The position numbers and the translations under genes were made by a program. Source: Candidatus Saccharimonadota bacterium (GTDB taxonomy: Bacteria > Patescibacteriota > Saccharimonadia > Saccharimonadales > Saccharimonadaceae). Taken from it: a DNA stretch of 12,916 nt. A model generated the notes under the pieces. The model saw nothing but the letters and a program-made list of their open reading frames with translations, searched no databases and had not been told where the DNA came from. Where the stretch lies: positions 10,430-23,345 of the forward strand of contig JAUNQQ010000003.1 of assembly GCA_030536095.1 (NCBI GenBank), written 5' to 3'. Positions 4,718-12,916 of the stretch are shown one piece after another (position 1 is the first letter of the stretch; every line of letters starts with the position of its first letter).

Positions 4718-6289
4718 TCACTTTACACTCCATCTTTCTATCCAAATTATCGGCATCACCAAAACTACCGGCACCATATATCTAAAAATTATCACCGGCG
4801 CCAAGACAATCGTCACTAAAAGCCCCGCCACTAAACTCATCCCGACTAATTGCTTCCATTTTTTTCGATAAATCACCTCTGTTAAAATCATCGTAAAAAT
4901 CACCAATAAAATCCCTCCTCCCCACAAAACTCGTAAAATCGGAATCCTACTAAACCATCCTCCCTGCGTCATTTTTCCAATTATTTTCGATAAGATATTA
5001 TCTCCACTTAAATGCCGAATTTCCATTCCATTTTGCTCATCCTTTGTCCATTTCCACTCTGCCCACGGATGATAAATCCTCGTATCTGGATATTTTTTCC
5101 ATGGGTAATAAACCCCTAAATCGAGTAGTCCCATCGCTTCCGCATAATTCTGAAAATCCTTCATTCCAATCCTCATCCATAATCCTAAATAATCCCCAAA
5201 ATTATCCGCCATATATTTATCATTTGCACATTTCTTAAAATTATCCGATATCCCCTGGTCTTTTCGGTAATATTCAAAATCACACTTCGGATAAAAATTC
5301 TCAAACGCTTTTCTTTCTTTCTCGGTCCAAATCCCTCTATTCATCACATAACTTCGCGTCATCTGCATTACCGGCAAATTCATACTCTCGTGCCATAAAC
5401 TCAGCTTTTTTACTCCCATTCTATCCAAAATCGGTCCATTAAAAATCATTATGCTACCAATAATTAAACTCATTATTCCCAAAAATTCTCCTCTTCTCCC
5501 ACGCAGTATTATTACTCCTATCACCACCATCGGCATCATCGCAAATAGTCCGTTACTTCTAAAAATCCCCATCAAAAATCCCAACAAAATCATCAATAAA
5601 ATATTCACTCTCTCTTCATTTACCCATTTTGTTATCCCCAACAAAAAACCCGCAAAAAACACACCAAACAATACATCATGACATCCAGACACGCTTAAAA
5701 CCAAAAGCGGTAAATGCGTCATAAAAAATATCATTAAAATAAAAATTACTTTTCCATTTTTCGTTCTTTCATAAAAATACTTTAGTCCTTTCGCCTCCAC
5801 TAACGCTACTGCCAAAATCTGCAATAAAATCAATCCCGCATACCCAATCTCTCGACTCTGAAAAATCGTCTCTCCAAGACTAATAAATCCACCCATCAAC
5901 CAGATAAACGGAATTGGATAATGCGTATCATAGACTCCACTCGTCCACCGTCGCAACTGAAAAATCGTATCATATCCAAACACTCCCGGAAAAGCCACCA
6001 GCCAAACCACTACTAACGGAATCACCAAAATCCCCATAATTTTCAGCTCTTCCATTTTTCCAACTTTTTCACCCCATTCCTCTAATCTCTTTCCAATCTT
6101 CCCTTTACCACTCTCCTTTTTCCTACCTAACCATAAATTCATCAACACCCCCACAATACCGCTTACCACTAAAATCTTAAGAATAGTAAAAACATCCCAT
6201 TTAATCTCGGAACTATTTTCCAACTGCCTTCCGATTACCAACAAAATCCCCCAAAAAATCCCAAACACACCCGCCAAAAACTTCCTCAT
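4718..6289 (-). CDS. DUF6020-like polytopic membrane protein, putative GT-C-type
   Basis: This 523-residue membrane protein resembles the DUF6020 family, which is common in surface-polysaccharide loci and has no established reaction. Two N-terminal helices (about 5-20 and 36-54) and a charged cytoplasmic linker (55-83) precede a helix at 86-100. Then comes the signature FPGVFGYDTIFQ (100-111), with Asp107 and Gln111 and a nearby HYPIP at 123-127, a layout like the first external loop of GT-C enzymes. A later VSGCHDVLFG segment matches a second family pattern. A soluble region of about 120 residues (roughly 300-430) separates the main helices from two C-terminal helices. It ends in TGA followed by a run of seven T. 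The start follows an extended -10 box by seven bases. A role in surface glycan assembly is inferred from fold and neighbours. Confidence 0.78.
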   Translation of the reverse strand: MRKFLAGVFGIFWGILLVIGRQLENSSEIKWDVFTILKILVVSGIVGVLMNLWLGRKKESGKGKIGKRLEEWGEKVGKMEELKIMGILVIPLVVVWLVAFPGVFGYDTIFQLRRWTSGVYDTHYPIPFIWLMGGFISLGETIFQSREIGYAGLILLQILAVALVEAKGLKYFYERTKNGKVIFILMIFFMTHLPLLVLSVSGCHDVLFGVFFAGFLLGITKWVNEERVNILLMILLGFLMGIFRSNGLFAMMPMVVIGVIILRGRRGEFLGIMSLIIGSIMIFNGPILDRMGVKKLSLWHESMNLPVMQMTRSYVMNRGIWTEKERKAFENFYPKCDFEYYRKDQGISDNFKKCANDKYMADNFGDYLGLWMRIGMKDFQNYAEAMGLLDLGVYYPWKKYPDTRIYHPWAEWKWTKDEQNGMEIRHLSGDNILSKIIGKMTQGGWFSRIPILRVLWGGGILLVIFTMILTEVIYRKKWKQLVGMSLVAGLLVTIVLAPVIIFRYMVPVVLVMPIIWIERWSVK

Positions 6290-6305: not shown

Positions 6306-6317
6306 TACAACAAATAC

Positions 6318-6441
6318 AAAAACGATTTCTAGAGATGAAGTCCGAGGATGCGACGAGAAGCGAGGACGGGCTGGGCTTTATCGCCCTGCCCTCCGAGCCT
6401 CGCAGTCGCAGACGAAGGAATTCGCTCTAGAAATCGTTTTT
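6318..6441. repeat. Intergenic inverted-repeat element, copy 1 (complete)
   Basis: The 124-base element is bounded by perfect 17-base inverted arms, 6318-6334 and 6425-6441 (AAAAACGATTTCTAGAG and its complement). Nested inside are further complementary blocks: 6349-6354 with 6405-6410, 6360-6365 with 6398-6403, and 6368-6376 with 6383-6391 (nine positions, one central T-T mismatch), closed by a six-base loop. Transcribed, this would fold into a rod-like hairpin. The arms end in an A-tract and a T-tract on either strand, so it could act as a bidirectional intrinsic terminator. The right arm overlaps the last codons of the GT2 gene, and the left edge lies just upstream of the DUF6020 promoter. 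A related copy is at 12695-12916. It may be a genomic repeat family, a structured non-coding RNA or a terminator module; the sequence alone does not decide. Confidence 0.85.
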
Positions 6442-7380
6442 AGTCAGGTTCATTAAGATTTCATATCTTTGCCGGTCCTTCTTATTAATCACCTGTAAAA
6501 TCAACCCCGTCACAAAATCCAATAGTCCAAACAAAATCAAAAAGCATCCCACTACTAATCTCGGAATCTTCGTCACAAAACCAGCCTGAAAATACTCAGA
6601 AAAAGCCGGCCAAACCAAAACCAATCCGATAATTCCAAAAATCACCGCAAGAATCGTAAAAAACCTCAGTGGTTTATATTCCGCAAACAACACTCCAATC
6701 GTCTTTAAAACTTTCAATCCATCCGTATAAGTCGACAATTTCGACTCGCTTCCCTCCGGCCGATCTCGATACTCAATCGGAATCTCCACAATCCGATAAT
6801 TCTTATCTACCGCGTGAATACTCATCTCCGTCTCAATCTCAAATCCCTTCGACAAAACCGGAAATCCTTTCACAAATTCCCGCGAAAACGCTCGATATCC
6901 CGTCATAATATCATGAATATCATTCTGGAATAATCGCCGGATTAACCACCGCACAATCTTATTCCCAAAATTATGCATCGGCCGCTTATTCTCTGAGAAA
7001 TATGTCGTCGATAATCTATCCCCCACCACCATATCCGCCTGTCCAGAAAGCACCAACTCACTCATTTCCCTCGCACTCTCCGCCGGATAAGTATCATCCG
7101 CATCCACCATGATATAACAATCCGCCTGAATCTCCCGAAACATCTGTCGCACTACATTCCCCTTCCCCTGCCTCGGCTCTTTTCTAAGCACTACCTTTTT
7201 CGTTAAGACCCCTTTCTTTGCCATCTTCTCGACAATCTCATAGCTCTTATCCGATGAATTATTATCATAAACATAAATCACCGCTTCCGGCAAAACCTTC
7301 CGAAAATCTTCCACCACTTTTTTAATCGTCTTTTCTTCGTTATAACACGGCACCAAAACCGCAATCTTCTCACTTTTCAT
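6427..7380 (-). CDS. GT2 glycosyltransferase, DPM1/GtrB/CsbB-like, with two C-terminal membrane helices
   Basis: This 317-residue enzyme likely moves a sugar from a nucleotide donor to polyprenyl phosphate on the cytoplasmic face of the membrane, giving the lipid-linked sugar that GT-C enzymes use. The GT-A domain shows the start strand with VPCYNEE (10-16), YDNNSSD (38-44), RQGKGN (70-75) and the metal-binding DADD (93-96). TGYRAFSREF (160-169), GFEIETEM (179-186) and the PIEYRDRPEGSESKL block (201-215) follow, as in DPM1-like GT2 enzymes. Two helices at about 240-262 and 276-297 anchor it, as in GtrB and CsbB. Pairing with the YfhO-like or GtrII-like protein is inferred; no GtrA/GtcA-type flippase is in the window. 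The ATG sits six bases after an extended -10 box. The last four residues (KNDF) and the TAG stop are encoded by the arm of the inverted-repeat element. Confidence 0.93.
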   Translation of the reverse strand: MKSEKIAVLVPCYNEEKTIKKVVEDFRKVLPEAVIYVYDNNSSDKSYEIVEKMAKKGVLTKKVVLRKEPRQGKGNVVRQMFREIQADCYIMVDADDTYPAESAREMSELVLSGQADMVVGDRLSTTYFSENKRPMHNFGNKIVRWLIRRLFQNDIHDIMTGYRAFSREFVKGFPVLSKGFEIETEMSIHAVDKNYRIVEIPIEYRDRPEGSESKLSTYTDGLKVLKTIGVLFAEYKPLRFFTILAVIFGIIGLVLVWPAFSEYFQAGFVTKIPRLVVGCFLILFGLLDFVTGLILQVINKKDRQRYEILMNLTKNDF

Positions 7381-7493: not shown

Positions 7494-8437
7494 TTATTCC
7501 TCTACTCGTCTCACGGTAAATTTCTGCGCCTTCGTTCCGTTTCCATCATAAATCTGAACATTCGTTCCGTCTTTTGCTCCCGCCCCAGCGACATCCAGAT
7601 ACTTTCCATTTGCCCTTGACATTAGCGAAACTGTCCCATCTCCATTATCTATAATCTTCCACTGTTGTGCTGGTGTTCCGTTCCATTCGTACTGTTGCAC
7701 ATTTGCTCCATTCTTTGTGCTTCCGCCCGCAACATCTAGGACTTTCTCATCGGCCGTATTCAAACTATTCGCATTTACCAGCACGTAATAACCGTTATTA
7801 AGCTGAACCGCCTTAAACCTCTGCGCTCCCGTTCCATTGCTGTGATAAAGCTGTATATTCGCTCCATTCTTTGTAGTTCCACCCGCAACATCCAGTGCTG
7901 AACTATCATTCACCTTTGATACAAACTCATACATACCCCTATCTTCAACCGCCTCGCTATCTTCACCCGTAAACGTTTCATCCTTCGTTAGTCCCCATTT
8001 CATCGCGTTCGTATTATCATTATGATAGACCTGAACATTTTTTCCATTCGCCGCTTTTCCACCACTTAGATTTAGATAGTAATCTCCCAACGCCGACTTA
8101 AATATATATACCCCATCCGAGACTTCTTCCGCTTTCCAAAGAACACGAGCGTCATCTCTCAATGTTTCAATTTTCCGATAATCATACTGCACCACATTCA
8201 CCCCATCCTTAATGTTCGTATCCGACACACCCAAATCATGTCCCGACCGAACATTCTCAATCCAGTAATACCCCTTTCCCGCATATTCAATCAAGTATCT
8301 CTGCGCCACAGTATTATTCGACTTATAAACCTGAACATTCGCTTCATTCGCCGTCGAGCCACCTGCAATATCTAACACAAAACTATTATCTACTGCACTT
8401 TTAATTGTATATGCACCATTCTCAATAATCTGTTCAA
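7494..8437 (-). repeat. Six ricin-type lectin subdomain repeats at the 3' end of the secreted-protein gene
   Basis: About 314 codons encode six repeats of a LDVAGGSTKNGANVQxY...NGTxAQ pattern, which together make two beta-trefoils. In protein order the cores read FVLDIAGG, HDLGVSD (degenerate), YYLNLSGG, SALDVAGG, KVLDVAGG and KYLDVAGA. The repetition is also visible in DNA: 7701-7739 and 7857-7895 differ at only five of 39 positions. Five of the six repeats keep a recognisable Q-x-(W/F/Y)-like element (AQRY, MKWG, AQRF, AQQW, AQKF). Confidence 0.85.
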
Positions 8438-11400
8438 CCTCAGTAATTTCCCAATCAACCACATTCGTCCCAATGTAATTTCCCTGGCCCGTCACAGTAA
8501 TCGTATATTTGTCTACCTCTGTCTCCGTCTCATCCTCACCATTAATCACATAGGTAAAATCCGTTCCCTGCTCAAGCTCATTCCCATCTCCATCCGTCAC
8601 GGTAATTTCCGGCGCAATCTCCTCTCCCGTATATTCTGCATTTAATGCAACCACCGTAAATTCTGCAATATCTACCGGCTTAACTCTAAACCACATCCGA
8701 ATACTTCCGGTATATTTCCCCGTTCCTTCGACATAAATCGCATAACTCCCCTCGCTCTTTACATCCGTCGCACCTTCTAGTACTTCATAATTATCATAAT
8801 CTTCCTCGTCTGCATAATAGCGAATTTCCGTCCAATAATCTTCACTGTTCGTTAAGACCGTCCCATCTGGCGCTGTCAACGTCAGCTCTGGCTTCTGGCT
8901 CTCACCGTTATACTCCAATTCATCGTCATAATCATAATCAAACGCTAATTCACCCTCACCATCTACCGCTATAATCTGTTCCGTTACCTTAACATTATAT
9001 TTCCTGGTTACGTTTCCAAAGTAATACCATACTATTGTTTCCCCTGGCCCAACCATTGTAATAGTATTTCCCTGCGCAACTGCAACTTCTTCATTTTCGC
9101 TCTCCCAACGTCCATTCTCTGGATCGACCTCTAAATCTTGCCATTCCGGTAACGCCGACGTATCAGAAATCTCAAATTCCCCCGCATCTTCTGCACTTTT
9201 TGCCTCGGTCACCACTACGTCAAACTTTACTTCCACGCCATTATAAGTCGTGCTGATCTTCGTCTCGCCCTTTGCTTTCGCGTAGATGATTCCGTTACTA
9301 ATCGTCGCAACGCTCTCGTCTTCTACCGTCCAAGTCTCATCCAAAATCGCGCTCCCCTCTAATTCTGTCCGGATATTATGCTTCTGATCATATTCGTCAT
9401 TTGTCACTAGTTCGACCGAGAACGGTCCTGCCATAATCGTCGCCGCATATGTCGTCTCCGAAACATCATTATAATTCTCTCCACCCGAAATCCGATAATG
9501 GACCGTATATTGACCGATTTCCGCTGCCTTCGGAGCTTCCGTTCCCCAGCTTTCACCGTCCAAACTAAACTCTACCGTTCCATCATTATCAGTCGTCAGT
9601 TCTCCTAATTCCTGATCTTCGCCATTATACTCCAACCCCACCACCGTCACTTCCTGAGTCGAAGTCGCTTTCTCAATTACAAATGTCGTACTCGCCGTGC
9701 TTCCGCTTCTATATCCCGCCGCCTCACCAGCTTCATTCACTACCGCCGTCGCCGTCGCCGTTCCTGCATTAACATTATCTTCATAAGTAACATCATAATA
9801 ATCTGCACTCACCGTTTCCCCACTCGCTCCCAACACCTTGATTGTCGCTTCCTTTGCTTCTCCGTTATAAACATAGACCGTCTCATCATCAAGTTCCGCT
9901 TTACTAAATGTTGACTTTACCGTCACGTGATAGGTCTTCATCTGCAAACCATATTTCACTATAACGTCTGTATTTCCTGCTGCTACCGGCGTAATTGTCC
10001 CCTTATTCACTGTTGCCACATTCGCATCAATGCTCTCCCATTCCCCATTCTCTCGCACATCCGCGTCTATTTCCCCATCATACCACTGTCCACCATTTAC
10101 ATTCAGCTCAACATCTTCTTCCCCGTCGTCAATAACCGCATAAACTTTTGTCGCATAACTCGCCACATAAGTCGCTTTTACTCCAACCAGTTTCACAAAC
10201 ACTGTCGTCTCGCCCGATGCTACCGCTGTCACTATTCCGTCTTTAACGGTCGCTACATTCGTATCTGCACTCTCATAAGTCAAGTAATCCGCAAACTCAT
10301 CGCCATAAACATTTTCCAATTCCACCGTCTCACCAGTCGCTAACTCCAACTCCTCCCCAGTTTTATCTTCTTGCGTATCCAAAATATCATACGTTTTCGC
10401 CGAATTTTGATATGCATCCAATCCGTCCTTAATATACTTCGCTTCCGGCGCCTTATCATAATTCCCACCTTCTAAAATCTCTTCTATATCTTCCGCAAAA
10501 ACTACGCCCTGAAAAGTTCCATCTGAAACCGTAATTTCCGGAATCGTTTCCATCCCATGCGGATTCGCCTCAAACACTGACGCTACACCCTTAAACGTTC
10601 CGCCGGAAATATTTACATGAATGTCATCATTTGTAGTGTGTTCCACAACCGCGAGCGCCGCTCCATCCGTTGTCGTGCCATTTCCATTCGCCGCACTTTT
10701 CGTCGGGTCAGTTGTCGAAGTTGAAGTCAGAATTCCACCCGAAATATCCAGGCTTCCCGCCCGAATCTCAACTGCCGTCATTCCACCAATAATCTCTCCA
10801 CCCGTAATCTCACTTACACCATCGTACGTCGGTAGATAAATTCCCGTCTCGCTTGCTGTAATTGAACCACCATTCACCGTAAACTGCGCACCCTGCTCCG
10901 AAAGATTTCCGTTTCCACTTATGCCATAACCGTTCGTTGAAACAATCTCTCCGCTATTTAATGTTACGGCCGCTTTTCCCCATCCAACTATGCCATAAGT
11001 ATCATTCGTTTCGCTTTCCGCCTTAATTGTCGCGCCATCAATATTCACCTCTGCGCCTTCGACATCCAATCCATACGCATCTGACTTAATCGTCGTCCCC
11101 TTGCCAAAATTTACTATCGCTCCGCCAAAAACATACACTCCTCGATCGCCCCCATCCCCAGAATCAACCGTTACATTTACGTCTTCCAACGTAACTACCG
11201 ACTCATTAAAAACCGACAACCCATACCCAGCATTATCATTTATTATTCCATTCTTAATCGTCAGCGCCCCGCCCATTACCTTAATCGCGCCCGTCACGGT
11301 TTTTCCGTTTAAGTCTAACGTCGTTTTTTCCCTACCAGTAATCCTAATACTTTTTCCCGTACCAAATTCAATATTATCATTCAGAGTATAGGTGTCGCTT

Positions 11401-11597
11401 TCACCATTATAACTATAAACCACCGCGTCATTACACCCCTCATTCACCGTATTAACGCACATATCAGCATCATTCACTGTTGTCGCAAATACATCTTCGA
11501 CCAACCCCGTCCCCAGCGGACTTGCCAGCGTTAATCCCGCTGTAACACTCGCCACCACGAGTCGTGACCAAGAAATTCTATGCTTCCTTGTTTTCAT
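7494..11597 (-). CDS. Giant secreted multidomain protein: beta-helix, Ig-like/MBG modules, two ricin-type lectin domains
   Basis: The product is 1367 residues. An N-terminal Sec signal peptide has a basic KTRKHR region, a hydrophobic core and a likely cleavage after VFA (residue 38). The only two cysteines I find (47 and 55) lie just after it and could form a disulfide. Residues about 70-375 carry short GG-rich repeats (NISGG, EITGG) typical of a right-handed beta-helix. BIG2-type Ig modules follow at about 417-490, 490-561, 726-795 and 800-870, with MBG-like YNGE/YTGEE modules at 564-725 and 873-1050. Two ricin-type beta-trefoils (about 1054-1216 and 1216-1367) end the protein, so glycan binding is the best-supported function. 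No LPXTG motif or C-terminal helix is seen, so anchoring is unexplained. A host-adhesion role is inferred. AGGAGG at 11606-11601 favours the ATG at 11597; ATG 11600 and GTG 11624 are alternatives. Confidence 0.9.
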   Translation of the reverse strand: MKTRKHRISWSRLVVASVTAGLTLASPLGTGLVEDVFATTVNDADMCVNTVNEGCNDAVVYSYNGESDTYTLNDNIEFGTGKSIRITGREKTTLDLNGKTVTGAIKVMGGALTIKNGIINDNAGYGLSVFNESVVTLEDVNVTVDSGDGGDRGVYVFGGAIVNFGKGTTIKSDAYGLDVEGAEVNIDGATIKAESETNDTYGIVGWGKAAVTLNSGEIVSTNGYGISGNGNLSEQGAQFTVNGGSITASETGIYLPTYDGVSEITGGEIIGGMTAVEIRAGSLDISGGILTSTSTTDPTKSAANGNGTTTDGAALAVVEHTTNDDIHVNISGGTFKGVASVFEANPHGMETIPEITVSDGTFQGVVFAEDIEEILEGGNYDKAPEAKYIKDGLDAYQNSAKTYDILDTQEDKTGEELELATGETVELENVYGDEFADYLTYESADTNVATVKDGIVTAVASGETTVFVKLVGVKATYVASYATKVYAVIDDGEEDVELNVNGGQWYDGEIDADVRENGEWESIDANVATVNKGTITPVAAGNTDVIVKYGLQMKTYHVTVKSTFSKAELDDETVYVYNGEAKEATIKVLGASGETVSADYYDVTYEDNVNAGTATATAVVNEAGEAAGYRSGSTASTTFVIEKATSTQEVTVVGLEYNGEDQELGELTTDNDGTVEFSLDGESWGTEAPKAAEIGQYTVHYRISGGENYNDVSETTYAATIMAGPFSVELVTNDEYDQKHNIRTELEGSAILDETWTVEDESVATISNGIIYAKAKGETKISTTYNGVEVKFDVVVTEAKSAEDAGEFEISDTSALPEWQDLEVDPENGRWESENEEVAVAQGNTITMVGPGETIVWYYFGNVTRKYNVKVTEQIIAVDGEGELAFDYDYDDELEYNGESQKPELTLTAPDGTVLTNSEDYWTEIRYYADEEDYDNYEVLEGATDVKSEGSYAIYVEGTGKYTGSIRMWFRVKPVDIAEFTVVALNAEYTGEEIAPEITVTDGDGNELEQGTDFTYVINGEDETETEVDKYTITVTGQGNYIGTNVVDWEITEVEQIIENGAYTIKSAVDNSFVLDIAGGSTANEANVQVYKSNNTVAQRYLIEYAGKGYYWIENVRSGHDLGVSDTNIKDGVNVVQYDYRKIETLRDDARVLWKAEEVSDGVYIFKSALGDYYLNLSGGKAANGKNVQVYHNDNTNAMKWGLTKDETFTGEDSEAVEDRGMYEFVSKVNDSSALDVAGGTTKNGANIQLYHSNGTGAQRFKAVQLNNGYYVLVNANSLNTADEKVLDVAGGSTKNGANVQQYEWNGTPAQQWKIIDNGDGTVSLMSRANGKYLDVAGAGAKDGTNVQIYDGNGTKAQKFTVRRVEE

Positions 11598-11600
11598 CAT

Positions 11601-11622
11601 CCTCCTTTTGGGCTTTTGGCCC
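11601..11622 (-). promoter_or_regulatory. Leader hairpin and strong Shine-Dalgarno of the lectin gene
   Basis: On the minus strand GGGC (11622-11619) can pair with GCCC (11613-11610) around a CAAAA loop. AAAAGGAGG (11609-11601) follows directly. The SD ends three bases before ATG 11597, short but workable, and abuts ATG 11600. The hairpin lies just upstream of the SD and would mask the alternative GTG start region. Only this gene has such a leader here. Confidence 0.6.
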
Positions 11623-11644
11623 ACACTCTTTTAATAACACCTAC

Positions 11645-12694: not shown

Positions 12695-12916
12695 AAAAAC
12701 GATTTCTAGGGATGAAATTCAAAGAAATAACAATCCGCGCCATTCGGCACGTCATAAACAAAATTTTTTGCTAGCTCCGCCAGTAAAAAATTTCATAATT
12801 CTTTTTCTTTTCGTTGGGGCTTTTCTTTTATAAAAAGAAAAGCCCCACCTTGATGTTGGGCTTAATGCCCTGCCTCCGAGCACTGCAGCCACAGACGAAG
12901 AAGTTCGCCCTAGAAA
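12695..12916. repeat. Intergenic inverted-repeat element, copy 2 (right arm cut by window edge)
   Basis: The left arm AAAAACGATTTCTAGGG (12695-12711) differs from copy 1 at one base. The visible part of the right arm, CCCTAGAAA (12908-12916), carries the matching change, so pairing is kept. The first 26 bases match copy 1 (6318-6343) at 23 positions. The last 60 (12857-12916) align with 6372-6433 at about 51 of 62 columns, including the GGGC-loop-GCCC core (12858-12861 with 12867-12870). Between these ends it holds about 136 bases absent from copy 1, including a strong hairpin at 12815-12847. The element lies directly upstream of the orn promoter. By analogy with copy 1, a gene outside the window may end in its right arm. 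Confidence 0.75.
12815..12847. repeat. Perfect 15-bp hairpin inside repeat copy 2
   Basis: TGGGGCTTTTCTTTT (12815-12829) is the exact reverse complement of 12833-12847, with a three-base loop. The stem is GC at the base and A/T at the tip. No T-tract follows on the plus strand. On the minus strand the bases after the stem are ACGAAAAG, so it is not a standard terminator. Confidence 0.8.

What the first reader, a model, noticed from the sequence alone, without database searches (positions are those of the whole stretch)
6318..6441. Intergenic structured repeat with compensatory base change between copies
Copy 1 has perfect 17-base inverted arms and three further nested stems. Copy 2 (12695-12916) has AG to GG in the left arm and the matching CT to CC in the right arm. 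One covarying pair in two copies is small but direct evidence that pairing is maintained. Both copies sit between genes, just upstream of a leaderless-type promoter. This fits a repeated terminator/insulator, a structured RNA family or a MITE-like element. I do not recognise it as any described class.
Basis: partly seen in the sequence, partly recalled or inferred. Interest (0 to 1): 0.75.

Follow-up and report, generated by a model that had tools for sequence, protein, structure and literature searches.

The report
Mobile DNA hairpin inside CPR genes
A short DNA hairpin has spread through the genomes of ultra-small candidate-phylum bacteria, settling just after genes or in frame inside essential genes, and its outer arms often look like an inverted copy of the gene it entered.

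Summary
The repeat is real and far more than two copies. It is a ~124-nt imperfect hairpin: a conserved ~85-nt core with fixed internal loops, closed by a ~17-bp outer stem of almost free sequence. Covariance models find it in 28 of 99 genus, 43 of 199 family and 39 of 379 phylum genomes searched. Of 42 pairs, 41 covary. Of 131 full copies, 60 touch a stop codon with one particular end and 33 lie in frame inside ORFs in the same orientation; 8 and 6 are reversed; 24 are neither. Hosts include ValRS, ArgRS and Mur ligases. In 9 of 11 in-gene copies tested, one arm encodes host residues found in homologues; the other arm, its inverted copy, does not. I read it as a non-autonomous mobile palindromic element that works like Rickettsia palindromic elements, here spread through candidate-phyla bacteria. 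Fold-back copying of host sequence is inferred; the mover is unknown. Terminator and ordinary structured RNA are less likely. In the window's own genome the arms travel with the element, so host-copied arms are not universal.

The parts
6318..6441 (+). Copy 1, whole element in the orientation of the covariance model; this is antisense to the flanking gene 6427-7380
   Evidence: R1 144.4 bits, R2 100.8 bits over 6316-6443
6318..6334 (+). Outer stem P1, left arm (17 nt)
   Evidence: P1 pairing falls towards background after position 17 in 21 own and 74 genus copies
6335..6424 (+). Core with conserved internal loops
6368..6391 (+). Distal hairpin GGGCTGGGC-loop-GCCCTGCCC
6362..6396 (+). Internal loop below the distal hairpin: GA at 6362-6363 opposite GA at 6395-6396
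6425..6441 (+). Outer stem P1, right arm (17 nt); read with the gene this is the first arm and it holds the gene's TAG stop at 6427-6429
6427..7380 (-). Glycosyltransferase family 2 gene ending inside the element; its closest homologues end within a few residues of the same place (e.g. ...MNLLKK*, ...LNLIKKDK*)
4718..6289 (-). Next gene on the same strand (DUF6020), a separate gene
12695..12916 (+). Copy 2, broken: left arm whole, core interrupted by about 100 foreign bases, right arm cut by the contig end

Best explanation
A small non-autonomous mobile palindromic element, working like the Rickettsia palindromic elements. SHOWN: one structural family (conserved core, about 17-bp outer stem) dispersed in many candidate-phyla genomes; in the window's genus it stands mostly at the 3' ends of genes or in frame inside genes, nearly always in one orientation relative to the gene; in 9 of 11 in-gene copies tested the arm on the gene's 5' side encodes host residues, and the other arm is complementary to it. 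INFERRED: the core enters DNA as a folded single strand, one end is joined to the host strand, the other end folds back and is extended about 17 nt using the host flank as template, and that inverted copy is joined to the far flank. Insertions that keep the frame and carry no stop, or that fall just after a stop, survive; inside genes they add roughly 30-36 codons in loops that vary between homologues, and then decay. UNKNOWN: the enzyme, and whether the intermediate is DNA or RNA.
For: Dispersal: 28/99, 43/199, 39/379 genomes; 0 matches at E<=1 in 508 kb of 80 control loci, nearly all of other phyla. Structure: 21/43 pairs doubly changed among 11 own copies, 41/42 in 78 rows, covariation score 0.845 against 0.213 shuffled and at most 0.138 slid in 31 rows of other genera. 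Placement: 60 vs 8 at stops, 33 vs 6 inside ORFs, 24 neither, of 131 (binomial p 6e-11 and 1e-5); 5 of 19 close neighbour pairs were tested and are separate genes. Host arm: over the 9 insertions where both sides could be anchored, protein identity to homologues is 0.357 for the host-side arm and 0.073 for the other, higher in 9 of 9; over all 11 the host-side mean is 0.343. S1 protein C-terminus. DNA: host-side arm 6.75-10.2 of 17 identical for 9 insertions (L189's mean counts its own gene once).
Against: Host-derived arms are not universal: the 12 own copies aligned share one arm sequence with small changes, copies in G386 and G389 share a related one, and 2 of the 11 tested insertions do not fit (L184 0.04, L207 0.14). 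DNA identity of the host-side arm is modest because homologues are diverged, and the other arm could be scored in few cases. No clear target-site duplication, though the wider set has a weak excess of flank repeats of 5 or more (13 of 62, 10% expected). No partner enzyme: Y1 transposase in 3 of 99 genomes. In seven wider genomes many copies are neither in nor at a gene (17 of 40) and the 3 inside ORFs are reversed. Part of the orientation bias inside genes could be selection on frame.
Confidence: 0.72

Rival explanations
1. A conventional MITE: both arms are terminal inverted repeats moved in trans by an unknown transposase; later drift plus template-switch correction between the arms lets arm sequences diverge while staying complementary.
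For: Arms are shared between copies in the window's genome, G386 and G389; orthologous sites show different but paired arms; arm correction by template switching is discussed for other palindromes (PMC6649704, passages); weak excess of flank repeats in the wider set (13 of 62, 10% expected).
Against: In 9 of 11 in-gene insertions the host-side arm encodes residues seen in homologues at that place; S1 likewise. No target-site duplication in own and genus copies. Y1 transposase in 3/99 genomes; DDE transposases were not searched.
Confidence: 0.3
2. A structured non-coding RNA (or RNA-templated element) read from the strand antisense to the host gene; the arms pair in that RNA.
For: Near-invariant unpaired bases; isolated arm mismatches are G.T 54 to A.C 15 in model orientation over genus and wider copies; reverse transcriptase genes in 23/28 element genomes against 37/71 others, p 0.006, post hoc.
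Against: In the window's own genome the mismatches are G.T 2, A.C 7. Copy number and sites vary between species, and copies lie in frame inside essential genes. No Rfam family reached its gathering score. The two reverse transcriptases of the window's genome are not next to copies (nearest about 10 kb) and look to me like DGR enzymes (recalled motif), so the association may be indirect.
Confidence: 0.2
3. A terminator or 3'-end stabiliser for the upstream gene.
For: Of 60 copies with a stop within 25 nt of the gene-side end, all have it between -17 and +7 nt; many own copies end in A-run/T-run on the two sides.
Against: 39 of 131 copies are inside ORFs; an mRNA hairpin should favour mismatches of the opposite kind from those seen in genus and wider copies.
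Confidence: 0.08

Closest known systems
Rickettsia palindromic elements (RPE)
   Same: 105-150 bp long hairpin, open reading frame, in-frame insertion into conserved genes and also between genes, target duplication marked '?' (PMC2229807 and PMC10969869, passages). That their mover is unknown is recalled.
   Different: Found here across candidate-phyla bacteria; core conserved as structure while the outer stem is nearly free in sequence; bias to one orientation and to gene 3' ends; host-derived arm in many coding copies. No RPE sequence was compared.
Bacterial MITEs (ERIC, RUP, Correia)
   Same: Short, palindromic, multi-copy, without a transposase gene.
   Different: No clear target-site duplication; no partner transposase identified.
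REP elements / REP-associated Y1 transposases
   Same: Hairpin repeats outside and next to genes (recalled).
   Different: REPs are 20-40 bp (PMC3733652, start of abstract in listing); Y1 transposase in 3 of 99 genomes.
Coding palindromes of Nematomorpha mitochondria
   Same: Inverted repeats inside coding sequence with complementary arms.
   Different: Perfect repeats up to 142 bp per arm, not a dispersed element with a common core as far as the passages say (PMC6649704, passages).
IS1272 (inverted-repeat-replacing insertion)
   Same: Targets are inverted repeats, no target duplication (PMC5678879, abstract).
   Different: No inverted repeat is evident at the empty sites printed (by eye, not tested by program).

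Membership tests
Rickettsia palindromic elements | Palindromic hairpin of about 105-150 bp | tested here: met
   about 124 nt
Rickettsia palindromic elements | In-frame insertion into conserved protein genes | tested here: met
   33+6 of 131 full copies inside ORFs; ORFs running through the copy were the criterion, so frame is partly by choice of cases
Rickettsia palindromic elements | Sequence homology to an RPE family | not tested
   no RPE sequence was fetched
MITE | Terminal inverted repeats | tested here: met
MITE | Target-site duplication | tested here: not met
   mean longest flank repeat own 2.90 (null 2.98), genus 3.15 (3.03), wider 3.32 (3.09); repeats of 5+ in 0/21, 8/79, 13/62 (null 9%, 8%, 10%), so a weak excess in the wider set only
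MITE | Partner transposase with matching ends | tested here: inconclusive
   only Y1 and RVT_1 were searched
Structured RNA family | Covariation supporting one structure | tested here: met
Structured RNA family | Transcript | not testable with these tools
   no expression data
Known Rfam family | Match above the gathering score | tested here: not met
   four weak matches, none reaching it and none in copy 1
Intrinsic terminator | Not inside an open reading frame | tested here: not met
   39 of 131
REP | 20-40 bp palindrome with Y1 transposase | tested here: not met
   length; Y1 in 3 of 99 genomes

The most novel reading that the evidence does not exclude
A mobile hairpin that, on insertion, makes half of its own outer stem by copying the host gene backwards: the core's free end folds back and is extended about 17 nt on the host flank, possibly by self-primed cDNA synthesis from an RNA read antisense to the gene. 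Each such coding insertion carries a stem tailored to its host, and the process has been feeding new loops into essential proteins across the candidate phyla radiation.
Probability: 0.35. Interest if true: 0.92.

Novelty: new variant of a known kind. Interest (0 to 1): 0.8.

Why it matters
Coding palindromes in bacteria are best known from Rickettsia, without a known mechanism (recalled). Here is an independent family, spread through a bacterial phylum, with one conserved fold, a fixed stem length and, in the window's genus, a fixed orientation to genes. The host-matched arm is a clue to mechanism that can be tested by comparing strains. It also explains some extra loops in proteins of these tiny genomes, and warns that such loops need not be functional.

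Tried and rejected
Ordinary sequence search missed the family: BLASTN found it in 2 of 99 genus genomes including its own, and the second hit is only an arm-like 23-mer. Viral contigs with one exact pattern, phage and plasmid records with one copy as query: none. Terminator and ncRNA readings: see rivals. Split genes rescued by splicing or bypassing: 5 of 19 close neighbour pairs were examined and are separate genes; copies breaking a gene out of frame were not searched for systematically. I first noted G-U equal to A-C from a fitted alignment; a register-independent count (repeated without six doubly fetched copies) reversed this for genus and wider copies, and I use. One search had counted some homologues that carry the element or are the same gene; one search leaves these eight loci out and is the one I quote. 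The reverse-transcriptase association is post hoc. Rows dropped: 11 opposite-strand duplicates of 115; 4 copies of 135 under 100 nt; G093's weak 69-nt hit was not followed. Alignment A5 kept one opposite-strand row by oversight (L117, 1 of 78), so model R2 holds it. Six copies are also. Not in print, as far as searched: (search listings only) show no such element in candidate phyla; subscription papers and preprints are not in that library.

Full report
WHAT IS IN THE WINDOW. Copy 1 (6318-6441) has perfect 17-nt arms and a long imperfect hairpin between them. It lies at the 3' end of a family-2 glycosyltransferase gene on the minus strand, whose TAG stop is inside the right arm. C-termini were printed for 79 of 80 homologue loci; the closest end within a few residues of the same place, so the element sits at the natural gene end. 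Copy 2 is a broken remnant cut by the contig end.

WHERE IT COMES FROM. The window is part of one contig of a 0.75-Mb draft genome. A same-genus genome, G034, has a contig of exactly the length (385,110) of a named Candidatus Saccharibacteria record from roe deer rumen, and named close relatives of a protein from another same-genus genome are Saccharibacteria. So I take the genus to be Saccharibacteria and the phylum Patescibacteria/CPR. This is inference.

THE FAMILY. BLASTN gives 19 further match rows in the genome, some fragments, but almost nothing in relatives (2 of 99 genomes including its own). A covariance model from 11 own copies finds matches in 28 of 99 genus genomes at E<=0.01. I collected 104 distinct places: 24 own, some partial, and 80 in 26 other genomes. 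A second model finds 43 of 199 family genomes in 25 of 61 genera at E<=0.001 and 39 of 379 phylum genomes in 35 of 313 genera and 26 families at E<=0.0001. The genomes were drawn from larger groups. The model finds nothing at E<=1 in 508 kb of 80 control loci, three of them Saccharibacteria. No whole genome outside the phylum was searched with it.

THE STRUCTURE. Nine unpaired core columns keep one base in 77-80 of 80 genus copies while helices change sequence. Of 42 pairs, 41 have double-sided changes. In 31 matches from other genera, some in other classes, 93.7% of cells pair against 59.6% shuffled and at most 38.8% slid; this alignment was fitted to the model, which helps it. The outer stem pairs well for 17 positions and drops from position 18 on.

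PLACEMENT. ORFs were called mechanically. Of ten in-frame hosts scanned with Pfam, six are class I tRNA synthetases, three of them with a ValRS C-terminal domain and two ArgRS; two are Mur ligases, one is PriA (a reversed copy) and one is a DHH protein below the cut-off. I call L162, L189, L203 and L226 IleRS and L202, L224 and L208 PolA from their sequence (recalled motifs). The translated element is Ser/Ala-rich, in more than one frame. The core, read with the gene, has at least one open frame in 80 of 80 genus copies, against 51 of 80 the other way, so selection on frame explains part of the bias inside genes but not at stops. In seven wider genomes the pattern is weaker: 16 of 40 at a stop in this orientation, 4 reversed, 3 inside ORFs, all reversed, 17 neither.

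THE ARMS. Several IleRS and ValRS homologues have short loops where the element stands; others carry Ser/Ala-rich inserts that may be decayed copies. For 11 insertions the host-side arm matches homologues at 0.343 mean protein identity; over the 9 where the far side could be anchored it is 0.357 against 0.073 for the other arm, and higher in 9 of 9; L184 (0.04) and L207 (0.14) do not fit. Mapping flanks onto homologues typically leaves about one arm plus a variable stretch: 11-40 nt in the 30 pairs that I printed for eight insertions out of 376 rows; for L184 and L207 the median is negative, as if the whole element had been added. In an S1-domain protein the arm encodes the last residues and stop, and the 59 homologue C-termini printed end in the same RKIS-type motif; whether those homologues carry the element is unknown. 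Against this, the 12 own copies share their arms, and so do copies in G386 and G389.

WHICH STRAND. Isolated arm mismatches are G.T 34 to A.C 12 in genus copies and 20 to 3 in wider ones, in model orientation; own copies 2 to 7. So pairing seems to matter on the strand antisense to the gene, as DNA or RNA. This speaks against an mRNA terminator.

MOVER. Y1 transposase is in 3 of 99 genus genomes. Reverse transcriptase is in 23 of 28 element genomes against 37 of 71 others; this was tested after the fact and the enzymes may belong to other systems. No clear target-site duplication; the wider set has a weak excess of flank repeats.

VERDICT. It works like a Rickettsia palindromic element; membership in that family was not tested by sequence. 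The fold-back origin of the arm is the boldest reading and needs close strain pairs.

Noticed in passing
window 12758-12796 and 12814-12848: Two unrelated hairpins inside the broken copy 2; the second is a near-perfect palindrome, perhaps another nested repeat.
   Followed up: partly
L109 about 1772-1852 (G000:C73) and L106 7081-7124 (end of G000:C44): Two copies are interrupted at a similar place by a related GC-rich sequence, suggesting a second element that inserts into the first (seen).
   Followed up: no
L205:2179-2481 and L106:5598-5852: Copies stand head to tail a few bases apart.
   Followed up: no
window 6427-7380: The glycosyltransferase's closest named relatives in genome contigs are Bacilli and Clostridia (up to 67% identity), suggesting horizontal transfer.
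   Followed up: no
window 7494-11624: 1376-aa protein with four RicinB-lectin stretches.
   Followed up: no
L404:1150-2406 and L405:2071-3144: Two reverse transcriptase genes in the window's genome, each with a gene of about 400-440 aa on the same strand nearby; type not established.
   Followed up: partly
L338, L339, L346, L372-L378: In wider candidate-phyla genomes the outer arm ends often share a motif like AGGACTTA, perhaps a true terminal repeat there.
   Followed up: partly
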